From Thalassotalea crassostreae (GTDB lineage: Bacteria > Pseudomonadota > Gammaproteobacteria > Enterobacterales > Alteromonadaceae), in NCBI RefSeq assembly GCF_001831495.1, contig NZ_CP017689.1, forward strand, positions 2,852,001 through 2,916,000: a DNA stretch of 64,000 nt, read 5' to 3'. Of the stretch, positions 17,721-22,043 are shown piece by piece. A program made the position numbers and the translations under genes. Every line of letters begins with the position of its first letter. Within the stretch, counting starts at the first letter, position 1. The notes beneath the pieces are model-generated. The model did not search any database. It was not told the DNA's origin and saw only the letters and a program-made list of their open reading frames with translations.

Positions 17721-19061
17721 TTAGTTTTTCTTATTTGCCATCATAGCTTCAATGTCGCTAATGGTTTTAGGCGCATTGACTGTAAGGTTTTCATAACCGT
17801 CTGCGGTGACTAATATATTATCTTCAATACGAATGCCTAAGCCTTGCCATTTATGCTCAACGTCAGCTTCGCCGTCGATATAAAGACCCGGCTCAATAGT
17901 CATCACCATGCCCGGTTCAAAACTGCGTAACTGCTGCTTATTCTCGTCCATTTGATAATCACCAACATCGTGAACATCCAGTCCTAACCAGTGACCTAAA
18001 CCATGAATGAAATACTTTTTACAAGCTCGCTGTTCAATCAAGGTATCGATATCACCGGATAGAATACCTAGCTTTAGTAGACCTTCAGTTAATACTTTTT
18101 CTGCGGCAATATTAGCGAGTGAAAAATTACTGCCTGGCTTGATGGTTTCAATCGCTGCAATTTGTGCATCTAATACCACTTGATAAAGCGCCGCTTGTTC
18201 TTCGCTAAACTTACCGTTAACAGGAAAGGTTCGAGTAATATCAGCGGCATAACCACTTAGCTCTGCGCCAGCATCAATCAATAACAATTCCTCGTCAATC
18301 AACACTTCATCATTGTCGGTATAATGCAATATCGTGGCATTTTCACCACCACCAATAATTGAACCATATGCCGCAGCTCTAGCGCCATTAAAGGCAAACT
18401 CATGCAATATTTCTGCTTCCACTTGATACTCAAAGGTACCGTGTTCGGTAAAACGCATAGCACGGGAATGGGCATTACCTGAAATAATATTGGCTTCTCG
18501 CATTACCGCGATTTCAGCGTCCGATTTAATTAACCGCATTTCGCTGATCATTGGTCGTATATCAATAGTCGTAGTCGGCGCACTAAAACCTTGTTTAGCG
18601 CCGTTGCGCAATACATCAAGACAAGCAAACACTAATCGATCGAATTCTTCTTGCAGACCTTGGGCAAACAAAATAGCGTCTCGACCATTAATATACATAG
18701 GTAATACTTGCTCAAGCTCATCTAATGTATAGGCATGATCAACTTTAAAATCTTGCTGCGCTTTTTCTGCGCCTACTCTGCGGCCATGCCAAACTTCTTG
18801 CAGTGGATCTTTGTCTCGGCAAAATAAAATCGTTTCGCATTCAAAGGTTTTCACTAATACCAGCAATGCATCAGGCTCATGAAAACCAGTTAAATAATAG
18901 AAATCTTTATCTTGGCAAAAAAGGAATTCGGTATCTCGAGAGCGAGTAACTTCTTTATTGGCAGGAATTAACGCCACTGAGTTTTCTGGCATTTGTGCCA
19001 TTAATTTTTCACGGCGCTCTATAAATTCGCTGATGTCTATTCGAGTGTGTTTCATCGACAT
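17721..19061 (-). CDS. pepP: Xaa-Pro aminopeptidase P
   Basis: A protein of 446 residues, typical of bacterial aminopeptidase P, a dinuclear manganese enzyme that removes an N-terminal residue before proline. The metal ligands are visible: DAGAELSGYAADITRTFP (two Asp), HGLGHWLGLDVHD (His), TIEPGLY (Glu) and GIRIEDNILV (Glu). The start could be the ATG at 19061 or the one two codons later; neither has a strong ribosome site. It lies between ygfB and ubiH, the usual gammaproteobacterial order. Confidence 0.95.
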   Translation of the reverse strand: MSMKHTRIDISEFIERREKLMAQMPENSVALIPANKEVTRSRDTEFLFCQDKDFYYLTGFHEPDALLVLVKTFECETILFCRDKDPLQEVWHGRRVGAEKAQQDFKVDHAYTLDELEQVLPMYINGRDAILFAQGLQEEFDRLVFACLDVLRNGAKQGFSAPTTTIDIRPMISEMRLIKSDAEIAVMREANIISGNAHSRAMRFTEHGTFEYQVEAEILHEFAFNGARAAAYGSIIGGGENATILHYTDNDEVLIDEELLLIDAGAELSGYAADITRTFPVNGKFSEEQAALYQVVLDAQIAAIETIKPGSNFSLANIAAEKVLTEGLLKLGILSGDIDTLIEQRACKKYFIHGLGHWLGLDVHDVGDYQMDENKQQLRSFEPGMVMTIEPGLYIDGEADVEHKWQGLGIRIEDNILVTADGYENLTVNAPKTISDIEAMMANKKN

Positions 19062-19080
19062 GATTAATTTCTACTTATAA

Positions 19081-19683
19081 TTAATGAATAGTGGCCGCAG
19101 CATCATCTGCTTTCGGTTTTTGACCTAGTTCGGCAAAACATAATAAAGATGAGATACGTACATATTCCATAATTTCGTAATAGGCATGTTCGGTTTCTTC
19201 ATCTTCTTCAAGTTCACTAGAAAGGTTGGCGATGTCACCAAAGTCTTTAATGATTTCTTTCACGTCTTCGGAAAACGCATCTTTATTTTTTTGTTGTAAG
19301 CCAAAGCCTAAGTTAAAACCTTGCACCCACAATCCCAGAGCTTGGCCACGCTCAACAATCGCTTCGTCGTCATCTGGCAATAACATTTGAAAGGTAAAGC
19401 TGTCATCAAGAACACTTTGCCAAATCTCACCATAAACCGTCTTAATTACATCTTTAAGTGATTTACTTAAACCTTCACCATTGTTGAAAAAATCATTGAG
19501 TAGGGTTAAGTAAGATTCATCTTCAAAAGCAAATCCGGCACTAATAATGCCCGTTAATAAGCCGTGAATTTCAGATGCGTGAGCAGCAAGGTTATCGCCA
19601 CCAAGTGCCGCTTGTACTTGTGCGAAAGAAAGCAAATTATTCTGTGCCATAAAATTAAAGTTCTTAGTATTGTGTGAGTTCAT
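19081..19683 (-). CDS. ygfB: YgfB, UPF0149 family protein
   Basis: About 200 residues, acidic and helical, with the UPF0149 hallmarks HASEIHGLLTGIISAG near the N-terminus and GLWVQGFNLGFGL in the middle. The biochemical role is not well defined in most bacteria; in Pseudomonas YgfB acts in regulation. It leads the ygfB-pepP-ubiH-ubiI operon. The first 11 residues (MNSHNTKNFNF) look atypical, so MAQNNLLSFAQ at 19650 is an alternative start. In E. coli zapA lies between ygfB and the 6S gene; I find no such frame here. Confidence 0.9.
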   Translation of the reverse strand: MNSHNTKNFNFMAQNNLLSFAQVQAALGGDNLAAHASEIHGLLTGIISAGFAFEDESYLTLLNDFFNNGEGLSKSLKDVIKTVYGEIWQSVLDDSFTFQMLLPDDDEAIVERGQALGLWVQGFNLGFGLQQKNKDAFSEDVKEIIKDFGDIANLSSELEEDEETEHAYYEIMEYVRISSLLCFAELGQKPKADDAAATIH

Positions 19684-19950
19684 TCAATAGCGACTAATGT
19701 ACCATTGTACGGCGCTTTTCTCTAGTAACTATTGTAGTTCAATATGGTTAAAAACCTAGCAAATTGATGGCATTAACAGCAGTCGGTATTAATTTGCTAA
19801 TAAAGCACTTGAATAATCAAACGCTTCTTACTAAAGTGCAAGCCTGTCAACGAGTGCTAGCGGTTAAACTAGCGATTGAATGAGTATTCGTTGACCGAAT
19901 ATTTTATGTTAAATATTTAACCAAAAGTTACCCTTTCATCGCTGGCAAGG

Positions 19951-19989
19951 TGTATACTGTTTAAACCAATTGAAATTTATTTCTATTGG
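19951..19989 (+). promoter_or_regulatory. Upstream region of the 6S RNA gene
   Basis: TGTATACT (19951-19958) is an extended -10-like element about 40 bp upstream of the predicted 6S 5' end and could start a longer precursor. The nearly perfect hairpin CCAAT-T-GAAAT / ATTTC-T-ATTGG covers 19966-19989, directly before the mature RNA. I cannot assign the promoter of the mature form with confidence. Confidence 0.35.
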
Positions 19990-19995
19990 ATATTT

Positions 19996-20176
19996 TGTTC
20001 CCTGGGGTGTTTGTGGTTGACTACGTCCCTGAGCCGATAAGTTTTACCTAAGGAGATTTATCAGTTGCTTTTGAGCAAGCTCGGCTAGTATCGAGAAGCC
20101 TACGGCAGTTGTGCGATTTCCGCCCTGAACACACGGTGTTCTAGGGCTGACGTTAATTACGGCATCTTGGGGGGCA
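19996..20176 (+). ncRNA. ssrS: 6S RNA
   Basis: About 181 nt. The 5' arm (UGUUCCCUGGGGUGU) pairs with the 3' arm (GGCAUCUUGGGGGGCA). The diagnostic CCCTGAGCCGATA segment lies at 20027-20039, with TCGAGAAGCC at 20091-20100 on the opposite side of the central region. GCCCTGAACACACGG then GTGTTCTAGGGC forms the 3' hairpin. 6S RNA mimics an open promoter and sequesters sigma-70 RNA polymerase in stationary phase. Its position just upstream of ygfA is the classic one. The exact ends are estimated from base pairing. The 3' third is repeated three times downstream. Confidence 0.93.
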
Positions 20177-20200
20177 CCCACTTCTTTTTCTATATCCCAT

Positions 20201-20543
20201 ATTTACCTTCAAGGCGGACCGCCCTGAACACTAATACCCAACTGTGTTCTAAGGCTGACGTTAATTACGGCATCTTGGGGGGCACCCTATATATTTTATC
20301 TTTTAAAATTTTTTCTATTTCCCAAATACTTAATGCTATTTACCTTCAAGGCGGACCGCCCTGAACACTAATACCCAACTGTGTTCTACGGCTGACGTTA
20401 ATTACGGCATCTTGGGGGGCACCCACTTCTTTTTCTATACCCCAAAACTTATGATTATTTACCTTCAAGGCGGACCGCCCTGAACACTTATACCCAACTG
20501 TGTTCTATGGCTGACGTTAATTACGGCATCTTGGGGGGCACCC
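20201..20543 (+). repeat. Three tandem copies of the 3' third of 6S RNA
   Basis: Units of 87 nt lie at 20201-20287, 20338-20424 and 20457-20543. Each begins with ATTTACCTTCAAGGCGGA, absent from the true 6S gene. Each then repeats the 6S 3' part from CCGCCCTGAACAC to GGGGGGCACCC (in the true gene at 20120-20179). The copies differ from the parent by a loop nine bases longer (TAATACCCAACT) and from each other by only a few bases. After GGGGGGCACCC most copies carry TTCTTTTTCT, which resembles a terminator tail. The array ends about 100 bp before ygfA. Confidence 0.9.
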
Positions 20544-20646
20544 ATTTCTTTTTCTAATTCTAATTCTAATTAGACGCCGCATTACACATTATCTGCGTTA
20601 TATGATTAACTATAAACAATAGTTAAATTATCGAGTTCACAAATCG

Positions 20647-21270
20647 ATGACCAAAGAGTCGAACCTTAATAAACAACAATTATCTAAAATAGAAAACGCT
20701 ACTGAGCGAAATGCATTACGCAAACTAGTGCGCAGTCGTCGTCAACAAATGTCGCCAGCCGAACAGCTGCAAGCAAGCCAATCAATTAAGTTAGTTTTAA
20801 GTAAACACCCACAAATAATTAAAGCCAAAACCATCGCTTTGTATTTAGCCAATGATGGTGAGCTAGATTTGGCCGAATTTATTCATTGGTGTTGGCAACA
20901 AAATAAACAGCTTTATTTACCTGTTTTACATCCATTTAGTGCTGGGCATTTATTGTTTTTAAATTACCAAGCAGATACAAAAATGCAGCAAAACAAATAT
21001 GGTATTAGCGAGCCAAAACTCGATGTGACAAAGGTATTACCCGTATCTCAGCTCGATGTTTTGTTAACGCCATTAGTCGCCTTCGACTCAGCAGGTAATC
21101 GCATGGGTATGGGCGGTGGTTACTATGACCGAACGTTAGCACAGTGGCACCAACAACATGCAAGTAAGCCTTTCCCCATTGGTGTTGCTCATAGCTGCCA
21201 ACAAGTTGACAAAATTCCCGTTGAACAATGGGATATTGCAATCCCTGAAATTCTTACCCCAGATTTTTAA
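20647..21270 (+). CDS. ygfA: 5-formyltetrahydrofolate cyclo-ligase
   Basis: A protein of 207 residues that converts 5-formyl-THF to 5,10-methenyl-THF with ATP. The family signature GMGGGYYDRTLAQW is present, as are KAKTIALYLANDGELDL and LLTPLVAFDSAGNRMGMG. The N-terminus has a ~20-residue extension (MTKESNLNKQQLSKIENATE) before the usual start region ALRKLVRSRRQQMS. It sits downstream of the 6S RNA array and is probably co-transcribed by read-through, as in E. coli. It is 113 bp upstream of rpiA. Confidence 0.95.
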   Translation: MTKESNLNKQQLSKIENATERNALRKLVRSRRQQMSPAEQLQASQSIKLVLSKHPQIIKAKTIALYLANDGELDLAEFIHWCWQQNKQLYLPVLHPFSAGHLLFLNYQADTKMQQNKYGISEPKLDVTKVLPVSQLDVLLTPLVAFDSAGNRMGMGGGYYDRTLAQWHQQHASKPFPIGVAHSCQQVDKIPVEQWDIAIPEILTPDF

Positions 21271-21383
21271 CACAACGCTTAAGAAAACCGTTTATTGAGT
21301 GCCTATAAACAGGTTACAATATGCGCAATTCGATTTAGATACTAATATTTAGGTGCTATTTAGCACAAGGTTCAGGATTTATC

Positions 21384-22043
21384 ATGACTCAAGATGAAAT
21401 GAAAAAAGCAGCAGCAATAAAAGCGCTGGAATTTGTAGAAGCAGACACTATTGTTGGTGTTGGTACAGGTTCAACAGTTAATCACTTTATTGATGCTCTA
21501 GCGACAATGAAAGATAAAATTGTTGGCGCTGTTTCTAGTTCTGAAGCATCTACAGAGCGATTAGAGTCATACGGAATTGAAGTGTTTGATTTAAACTCTG
21601 TTGACGATTTATCTGTTTACGTTGATGGTGCCGATGAGATTACCGAACATGGTCACATGATAAAAGGTGGTGGCGCCGCGTTAACTCGAGAAAAAATTGT
21701 TGCCGCAGTAGCAAAGAAATTCATCTGTATTGCCGATAGTTCTAAACAGGTTGGCGTACTTGGTTCATTTCCACTACCGGTTGAAGTGATCCCAATGGCA
21801 CGTAGCTATGTGGCTCGCGAATTAGTAAAACTTGGTGGCGATCCAGAATACCGCACTGGTGTTATTACCGATAACGGAAACGTGATTTTAGATGTTCACA
21901 ATATGGAAATATTAAATCCTATTGAGATGGAAACTAAAATCAATGCTCTTGTTGGTGTAGTAACAAACGGACTATTTGCCGACCGTGGCGCTGATATATT
22001 GGTGCTAGGTACTGAAAATGGTGCAGAAGTTATTTCTTTGTAG
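21384..22043 (+). CDS. rpiA: Ribose-5-phosphate isomerase A
   Basis: A protein of 219 residues, the standard length. It interconverts ribose-5-phosphate and ribulose-5-phosphate in the pentose phosphate pathway. The phosphate loop is [16 protein letters not shown]. The active-site stretch DGADEI and the [14 protein letters not shown] motif with its catalytic Lys and Glu are intact. The gene stands alone behind ygfA and ends at a clear terminator (22081-22110). Confidence 0.97.

What the first reader, a model, noticed from the sequence alone, without database searches (positions are those of the whole stretch)
19996..20543. 6S RNA followed by three tandem copies of its own 3' third
Seen: the 6S gene ends near 20176. 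Three 87-nt units (20201-20287, 20338-20424, 20457-20543) each repeat the 6S 3' hairpin and 3' closing arm, to GGGGGGCACCC. Each has a leader (ATTTACCTTCAAGGCGGA) that the true gene lacks, and a loop nine bases longer. The copies resemble one another more than the parent, so they probably descend from one diverged copy that was then amplified. Inference: each can pair with the single 6S 5' arm, so a read-through transcript could swap 3' arms. Alternatively the units could be small RNAs, polymerase decoys, or stacked terminators before ygfA. I know of no described case.
Basis: partly seen in the sequence, partly recalled or inferred. Interest (0 to 1): 0.88.

Follow-up and report, generated by a model that had tools for sequence, protein, structure and literature searches.

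The report
Tandem copies of 6S RNA's tail
Behind the gene for 6S RNA, a bacterial regulator of RNA polymerase, this marine bacterium carries three altered copies of the gene's own tail; similar arrays occur in many Colwellia relatives and in Agarivorans, and resemble known repeats behind other E. coli RNA genes.

Summary
6S RNA (19996-20177) is followed by three 87-nt units that repeat its 3' third, differ from one another at 1-2 bases, and carry an 18-nt leader and nine extra bases. It is not a one-off: one test found copies of the genome's own 6S tail behind 6S in 23 of 208 sampled genomes and 38 of 67 named loci, 49 distinct genomes in all. In Colwellia and Cognaticolwellia the units share a leader that 6S lacks, conserved above the spacers. 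The window's units do not fit that family, so arrays probably arose more than once. The kind is known: the same approach finds three such copies behind E. coli rnpB, with an internal insertion, and behind tyrV, but none behind E. coli ssrS. For 6S I found no description in the papers I could search. Most likely the array is a read-through tail acting in Rho-type termination and 3' trimming: units are less structured and more C-rich than their parent, but specific Rho signals are not enriched. Arm swapping is thermodynamically possible but not unit-specific.

The parts
19996..20177 (+). 6S RNA gene (ssrS)
   Evidence: RF00013, 83.2 bits, E 3e-16
20120..20179 (+). parent segment: 3' central-bubble hairpin and 3' closing arm of 6S
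   Evidence: blastn match to unit 1, 84%; read directly
20201..20287 (+). unit 1, diverged copy of the 6S 3' third with leader 20201-20218
20338..20424 (+). unit 2, leader 20338-20355
   Evidence: 1 difference from unit 1
20457..20543 (+). unit 3, leader 20457-20474
   Evidence: 2 differences from unit 1
20205..20282 (+). possible self-closing stem of unit 1: 20205-20213 (ACCTTCAAG) with 20274-20282 (CTTGGGGGG)
   Evidence: RNA fold of the unit, z-score only -0.47 against shuffles
20180..20200 (+). T-rich flank behind 6S; an 18-nt part (20185-20202) recurs at 20310-20327 and 20430-20447
   Evidence: direct repeat family D2
20647..21270 (+). ygfA, 5-formyltetrahydrofolate cyclo-ligase, next gene downstream
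   Evidence: TIGR02727 178 bits, cut-off 84.9

Best explanation
Shown: ssrS is followed by a tandem array of truncated, diverged copies of its own 3' end (3' central-bubble hairpin region, 3' closing arm, T-rich flank). The 3' parts track the host's own 6S, while the hairpin region has been rewritten (an arm or the loop, depending on the lineage) so that the units fold less stably than the parent. Inferred: the units have no promoter of their own and are made only as the read-through tail of 6S. This tail is a repeated 3'-end module: an open, C-rich, G-poor stretch where Rho loads and stops polymerase, with several copies of the natural 6S end sequence as stopping or trimming points, like the 3' repeats of E. 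coli rnpB and tyrT. Its size changes by unequal crossing-over, which also homogenises it with the 6S 3' end. The anatomy and the homogenisation pattern are well supported; the Rho step is a hypothesis.
For: Arrays sit directly behind 6S in 49 distinct genomes. A unit search of 17 Cognaticolwellia genomes finds units only at the 6S locus or at contig ends, and one of 7 Agarivorans-group genomes only at the 6S locus. They occur whatever gene lies downstream, so the function, if any, belongs to 6S. Arrays have (C-G)/length above the own 6S tail in 23 of 23, and units are less structured in 23 of 23; arrays exceed the following flank in 18 of 21 and the preceding flank in 22 of 23. In 26 further loci fetched after the idea was noted: units more C-rich than the own tail 25 of 26, less structured 26 of 26, array above its following flank 19 of 23. 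Promoter-like and terminator-like sites are near or below shuffle expectation. Unit 3' part plus flank matches the own 6S best in 36 of 49. E. coli ssrS is Rho-terminated according to a paper whose title I saw only in reference lists. E. coli rnpB shows the same anatomy.
Against: Windows with the regular C spacing used by Rho predictors (my own simplified version) are no commoner in arrays (31 of 44) than behind 6S without an array (152 of 184), nor than in shuffled arrays (mean fraction of window starts 0.14 against 0.15); upstream of 6S it is 27 of 46, fraction 0.06. The same C excess exists, weaker, behind 6S without arrays (mean 0.055, 184 loci), so it may be ancestral. Loss of structure is also what decay would give. 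One of the 26 further arrays (L298) is not C-rich. In E. coli rnpB the downstream repeats are not C-rich (74 C, 86 G). No transcript data were available.
Confidence: 0.4

Rival explanations
1. By-product of tandem duplication: the 3' end of a heavily transcribed gene is duplicated by slippage or unequal crossing-over, and copies drift and are homogenised without a function.
For: Patchy presence and copy number (4 of 15 in the window's genus, 12 of 17 in Cognaticolwellia, none in most other genera sampled); broken units in G008; concerted evolution (36 of 49); a near-identical copy of the RNase P 3' end in G004 shows that such events happen.
Against: In Colwellia and Cognaticolwellia a unit-specific leader is conserved (mean identity 0.73) while the spacers are at the shuffled level (0.56 against 0.55); 'CTA' in the 32-nt leader in 36 of 38 genomes and in 0 of 38 parents.
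Confidence: 0.27
2. The units are small RNAs or protein-binding RNA elements in their own right, cut from the read-through transcript (as RttR is thought to be from the tyrT transcript; recalled) and recognised through the conserved motif CCGCGCANCTCTAGAAAAGCAC.
For: Conservation of the motif in 25 genomes picked by a motif pattern and, without that pattern, of the leader in 38 genomes; a possible pairing of the leader with the unit's own 3' arm.
Against: No Rfam family matches; no covariation support, most pairs never vary and the consensus energy is only -1.8 kcal/mol; folding energy of the window units is not better than shuffles; the window's units do not fit the motif's profile.
Confidence: 0.2
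3. Arm exchange: in the read-through transcript a unit's 3' arm replaces the 6S 3' arm and makes 6S inactive until the tail is removed.
For: Equilibrium folding prefers a unit in 29 of 35 transcripts; cross-pairing gain averages -5.3 kcal/mol in 28 arrays against -1.7 in 30 loci without arrays.
Against: The 30 controls reach -12.4. An exact copy of the tail would do the same or more (-8.4 against -6.0 kcal/mol, 32 of 32 against 28 of 32). Closing arms are lost or interrupted in several lineages. Co-transcriptional folding favours the own arm, which is made first (inference).
Confidence: 0.08
4. Remnants of a mobile element that uses the 6S 3' end as attachment site.
For: A copy of a gene's 3' end is what integration into a gene end leaves behind (established knowledge; no call).
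Against: Units were not found away from 6S. No match in viral contigs (one exact motif only) or phage records. In Colwellia the homology also extends 5' of the rewritten segment. The periods are short. Integrase genes near 6S were not searched for.
Confidence: 0.03
5. Assembly artefact.
For: Several draft contigs end inside arrays (G127, G177, G214).
Against: Arrays in single-contig genomes (G000, G004, G021, G229, G278, G042, G280, G281); copies differ in sequence and spacing.
Confidence: 0.01

Closest known systems
E. coli rnpB (RNase P RNA) 3' tandem repeats
   Same: Stable RNA gene followed by three copies of its own 3' end (last ~50 nt, period 113 nt); each copy keeps the end and carries an internal insertion in place of a parental stretch.
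   Different: The rnpB repeats contain strong intrinsic terminators (read directly) and the tail is not C-rich; 6S units lack such terminators.
E. coli tyrT/tyrV tail repeats and RtT/RttR RNA (RF00391)
   Same: Three copies of the last 19 nt of the tRNA, period 178 nt, behind the tRNA gene; RF00391 matches four stretches there.
   Different: Only 19 nt of the parent are copied; unrelated sequence; a protein (Tpr) is annotated in the repeat.
Rho-dependent termination of E. coli ssrS (Chae et al. 2011; title only, seen in reference lists)
   Same: Same parent gene; 3' end formed from a longer transcript.
   Different: No 3' copies behind E. coli K-12 ssrS in the same test (score 24.5, shuffles up to 29.5).
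6S RNA (RF00013)
   Same: The parent gene is a clear member.
   Different: The units lack the 5' two thirds and match nothing in Rfam.

Membership tests
6S RNA (RF00013) | full-length covariance-model match | tested here: met
   gene 19996-20177: 83.2 bits, model 1-187
6S RNA (RF00013), for the units | units match the model on their own | tested here: not met
   no unit listed at E up to 1; same in 8 other array loci
rnpB-type 3' repeat array (works like) | stable RNA followed by tandem copies of its 3' end | tested here: met
   same method on E. coli rnpB
rnpB-type 3' repeat array (works like) | copies differ from the parent by an internal rewritten segment | tested here: met
   E. coli rnpB
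rnpB-type 3' repeat array (works like) | intrinsic terminator in each unit | tested here: not met
   one site (end of unit 1) in the window, none on the array strand in three other arrays
RtT RNA (RF00391) | covariance-model match | tested here: not met
   no hit in window 19000-22000 at E up to 1; positive control in E. coli
Rho-dependent terminator | C-rich, G-poor, little-structured RNA | tested here: met
   one exception, L298
Rho-dependent terminator | regularly spaced C windows above background | tested here: not met
   31 of 44 arrays against 152 of 184 non-array loci; not above shuffles
Rho-dependent terminator | termination depends on Rho | not testable with these tools
   needs bicyclomycin or Term-seq
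Colwellia/Cognaticolwellia unit family | window units score above the window's own 6S with the unit profile | tested here: not met
   6S 21.3 bits; units 13.0, 10.9, 9.4
mobile-element attachment sites | copies elsewhere in the genome | tested here: not met
mobile-element attachment sites | integrase-bearing element beside the copies | not tested
   no integrase search was made

The most novel reading that the evidence does not exclude
The arrays are a recurrent, selected accessory of 6S RNA in marine bacteria. The units are 6S-derived RNAs; in Colwellia and Cognaticolwellia the hairpin's 5' arm has been replaced by a conserved motif, so that the strand complementary to 6S stays open and can act on 6S (or on its complex with RNA polymerase) from the read-through tail or as a released fragment. 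Copy number would then set the dose.
Probability: 0.1. Interest if true: 0.85.

Novelty: new variant of a known kind. Interest (0 to 1): 0.6.

Why it matters
3'-terminal copies behind stable RNA genes are known from E. coli rnpB and tyrT, where their purpose has stayed unclear (recalled). A third RNA, 6S, showing the same anatomy in dozens of genomes, apparently from more than one origin and with a conserved leader that the parent lacks, turns an oddity into a comparative system. The arrays can be deleted and their number varied in culturable Colwellia, so the question whether such repeats end, trim or regulate the parent RNA becomes testable.

Tried and rejected
Blastn of the unit against 246 family genomes: outside the own genome it found only 6S tails or short pieces (7 genomes), too insensitive. 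It was replaced by aligning each genome's own 6S tail to its own downstream DNA.

Integration-site idea: rejected on location; integrases were not searched. Independent promoters: 2, 1, 0 and 0 promoter-like sites in four arrays against 2.1, 2.4, 2.2 and 1.2 expected. Leader hairpin in Colwellia units: 74% of its cells paired, but no excess of double changes or pair types over shuffles, and a slid control pairs more overall. ygfA attenuation as a general role: rejected. Control RNAs in 11 array genomes: RNase P 1 of 11 with a copy (G004), tmRNA 0 of 11. A likeness between the window's insert (CTAATACCCAACTG) and the E. coli rnpB insert (GCTATACCCAAAAGAAAG) was seen but not tested.

Limits. The 208 genomes are those whose loci I fetched. 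Beyond the loci, family members could be fetched only if their 6S match was printed (94.6 bits or more), so 23 of 208 is not an unbiased prevalence. Two of the 23 (G244, G276) are single weak hits. Of the 67 named loci, 3 had no downstream DNA and 2 had 80 nt or less; these loci are blocks of at most 8000 bases, so some counts are cut short. The named scan used a 6S pattern chosen to cover the array genera, so 38 of 67 is not a prevalence either. Alignment A1 holds 24 of 25 picked units (L307 left out, interrupted closing arm), and the 25 were picked by a pattern that includes CTA; avoids that pattern. Spacer identities rest on 406 of 703 genome pairs. Folding tests used 35 of 49 genomes, 28 of those 35 (length limit) and 32 of 49.

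Full report
Observation. The 6S gene (19996-20177, 83.2 bits) is followed by three 87-nt units at the stated coordinates. They differ from one another at 1-2 positions, all have the 18-nt leader and all end in GGGGGGCACCC; to the parent segment 20120-20179 identity is 84%. The tail-versus-downstream score is 92 against at most 29.5 in 100 shuffles. In the own single-contig genome the units were found only here. No Rfam family matches the units at E up to 1.

How widespread. For each genome I aligned the last 70 nt of its own 6S (plus 3 nt) with its own next 1 kb, with a threshold from Markov shuffles. Copies were found in 23 of 208 genomes: 4 of 15 in the window's genus, 12 of 17 in genus g8 (two of them weak single hits), 1 of 1 in g59, 6 of 7 in genus g29 of another family, and 0 of the other 168. 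A pattern scan of named genome contigs then gave 67 6S loci, 38 with copies. Twelve of the 38 are genomes already counted, judged by identical hit coordinates or contig lengths; together 49 distinct array genomes. On the same grounds g8 is Cognaticolwellia (C. aestuarii, mytili, sediminilitoris), the window's genus holds records named Thalassotalea (for example ND16A) and Thalassomonas sp. M1454, and g29 includes Agarivorans sp. Toyoura001. Colwellia psychrerythraea ND2E has 4 hits, C. demingiae 2, Colwellia sp. RSH04 5, sp. E2M01 5; Cognaticolwellia G278 has 7. E. coli K-12 ssrS has none.

Anatomy across lineages. The arrays copy roughly the same part: from the 3' side of the central bubble to the closing arm and the flank behind it. 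The 3' part and flank resemble the own 6S most (best match in 36 of 49), which points to concerted evolution. The hairpin is rewritten in different ways: in Colwellia and Cognaticolwellia CCCTGAACAC becomes roughly GCANCTCTAGAAAAGCAC; in Agarivorans the 5' arm and loop edge change; in the window the arms stay and the loop is replaced; in G004 the loop and the 3' arm change. Some units also have an insertion in the closing arm (L304, L307, G004, G013). In all 49 genomes the mean unit folds less stably per base than the same length of its parent (23 of 23; 26 of 26).

Selection on units. In 38 Colwellia and Cognaticolwellia array genomes, anchored on the 6S-like part and not on the motif, the leader has mean pairwise identity 0.73, the spacer 0.56 and shuffled leaders 0.55. 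'CTA' is in the 32-nt leader of at least one unit in 36 of 38 genomes and in the homologous 6S segment in 0 of 38. This is hard to explain by homogenisation with 6S, which lacks the motif. A sequence profile made from 24 such units scores the window's own 6S (21.3 bits) above the window's units (13.0, 10.9, 9.4), so the window's array is not of that family; Agarivorans units score no better than about their 6S. Either the arrays arose several times, or the units were rewritten beyond recognition.

Composition. In 23 of 23 arrays of the survey (C-G)/length exceeds that of the own 6S tail. It exceeds the following flank in 18 of 21 and the preceding flank in 22 of 23. In 26 further loci the unit is more C-rich than its parent in 25, and the array exceeds its following flank in 19 of 23. 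Against the Rho reading: windows with regularly spaced C are not enriched in arrays (31 of 44) over non-array loci (152 of 184), nor over shuffled arrays; both exceed the upstream DNA (27 of 46). So a C-rich stretch behind 6S may be general, and arrays only lengthen it.

Context. In the 38 named array loci ygfA was found within 3.5 kb in 2; the first ORF of at least 90 aa is convergent in 14, co-directional in 16, and none was seen in 8 with short DNA. In the window the next gene is ygfA. The scans found few promoter-like and terminator-like sites, near or below shuffle expectation; one terminator-like site lies at the end of unit 1.

Arm exchange. Whole-transcript folding pairs the 6S 5' arm with a unit in 29 of 35 transcripts, with its own arm in 5, with neither in 1. 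The mean cross-pairing gain is -5.3 kcal/mol in 28 arrays against -1.7 (down to -12.4) in 30 loci without arrays. Replacing the first unit by an exact copy of the tail gives the same preference (32 of 32; real units 28 of 32) and a larger gain (-8.4 against -6.0). So the possibility follows from any copy, and the units are if anything worse at it. These are equilibrium predictions.

Known relatives of the kind. The same method finds three copies of the last ~50 nt of RNase P RNA behind E. coli rnpB (period 113) and three copies of the last 19 nt of the tRNA behind tyrV (period 178). The rnpB copies carry GCTATACCCAAAAGAAAG or nearly so where the parent has AGAACC. In 60 genomes of the family of G051 (taken to be Enterobacteriaceae) 41 had some match to the repeat, most of the listed ones short or to its terminator part; of 8 loci read, 4 show a copy with a comparable insertion. 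RF00391 (RtT) marks the tyrV repeats. In 11 array genomes RNase P has a copy in 1 (G004, near-identical 3' part) and tmRNA in none, so among these three RNAs the arrays are largely specific to 6S. That the E. coli repeats have been discussed as extra terminators is recalled, not read here.

Literature. Searches '6S RNA + ssrS + tandem repeat' (4 papers, unrelated by title and start of abstract), '6S RNA + Colwellia' (none), '6S RNA + tandem + duplication + gammaproteobacteria' (1), and '6S RNA + ssrS + downstream + repeat + Alteromonadales' (the same one). That paper, PMC7641849, was read only in 12 passages; it treats ssrS neighbourhoods and those passages do not mention 3' copies. Searches for papers on the rnpB or tyrT repeats and on Colwellia transcriptomes gave nothing to the point in their listings. 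Chae et al. 2011 on Rho-dependent termination of ssrS was seen only as a title in reference lists and is not held. Only open-licence papers were searchable.

Verdict. A real, recurrent architecture of a known kind, new for 6S as far as searched; the function is open, with a 3'-end module the most likely.

Noticed in passing
L320 (G004), RNase P RNA and the DNA behind it: A near-identical copy of the 3' part of RNase P RNA lies about 24 nt behind the gene: probably a recent event of the same type at another stable RNA gene.
   Followed up: partly
window 19684-19995: No ORF of 60 aa or more on the + strand between ygfB (-) and 6S, although a paper states that 6S genes in these operons always follow zapA (passage) and E. 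coli shows zapA there: zapA seems to have moved or been lost here.
   Followed up: no
window 20231-20244 and L343: The window's loop insert (CTAATACCCAACTG) resembles the insert of the E. coli rnpB repeats (GCTATACCCAAAAGAAAG); not tested, possibly chance.
   Followed up: no
L136, L139, L141 (contig ends); L295 and L301 (record ends by their lengths): Several draft contigs end inside or just behind these arrays, so copy numbers in drafts are lower bounds.
   Followed up: partly
L042 2187-2414, L046, L049: The units of three genomes of the window's genus share a loop insert (CTCATATAATTGCG / GCTCAGATAAATGCG) that their 6S lacks and that the window's units lack.
   Followed up: partly
L139 (G127), array unit 2: A Cognaticolwellia array is interrupted by an unrelated insertion with an inverted-repeat look (GGCGAATAAATTCGCC), perhaps a MITE.
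   Followed up: no
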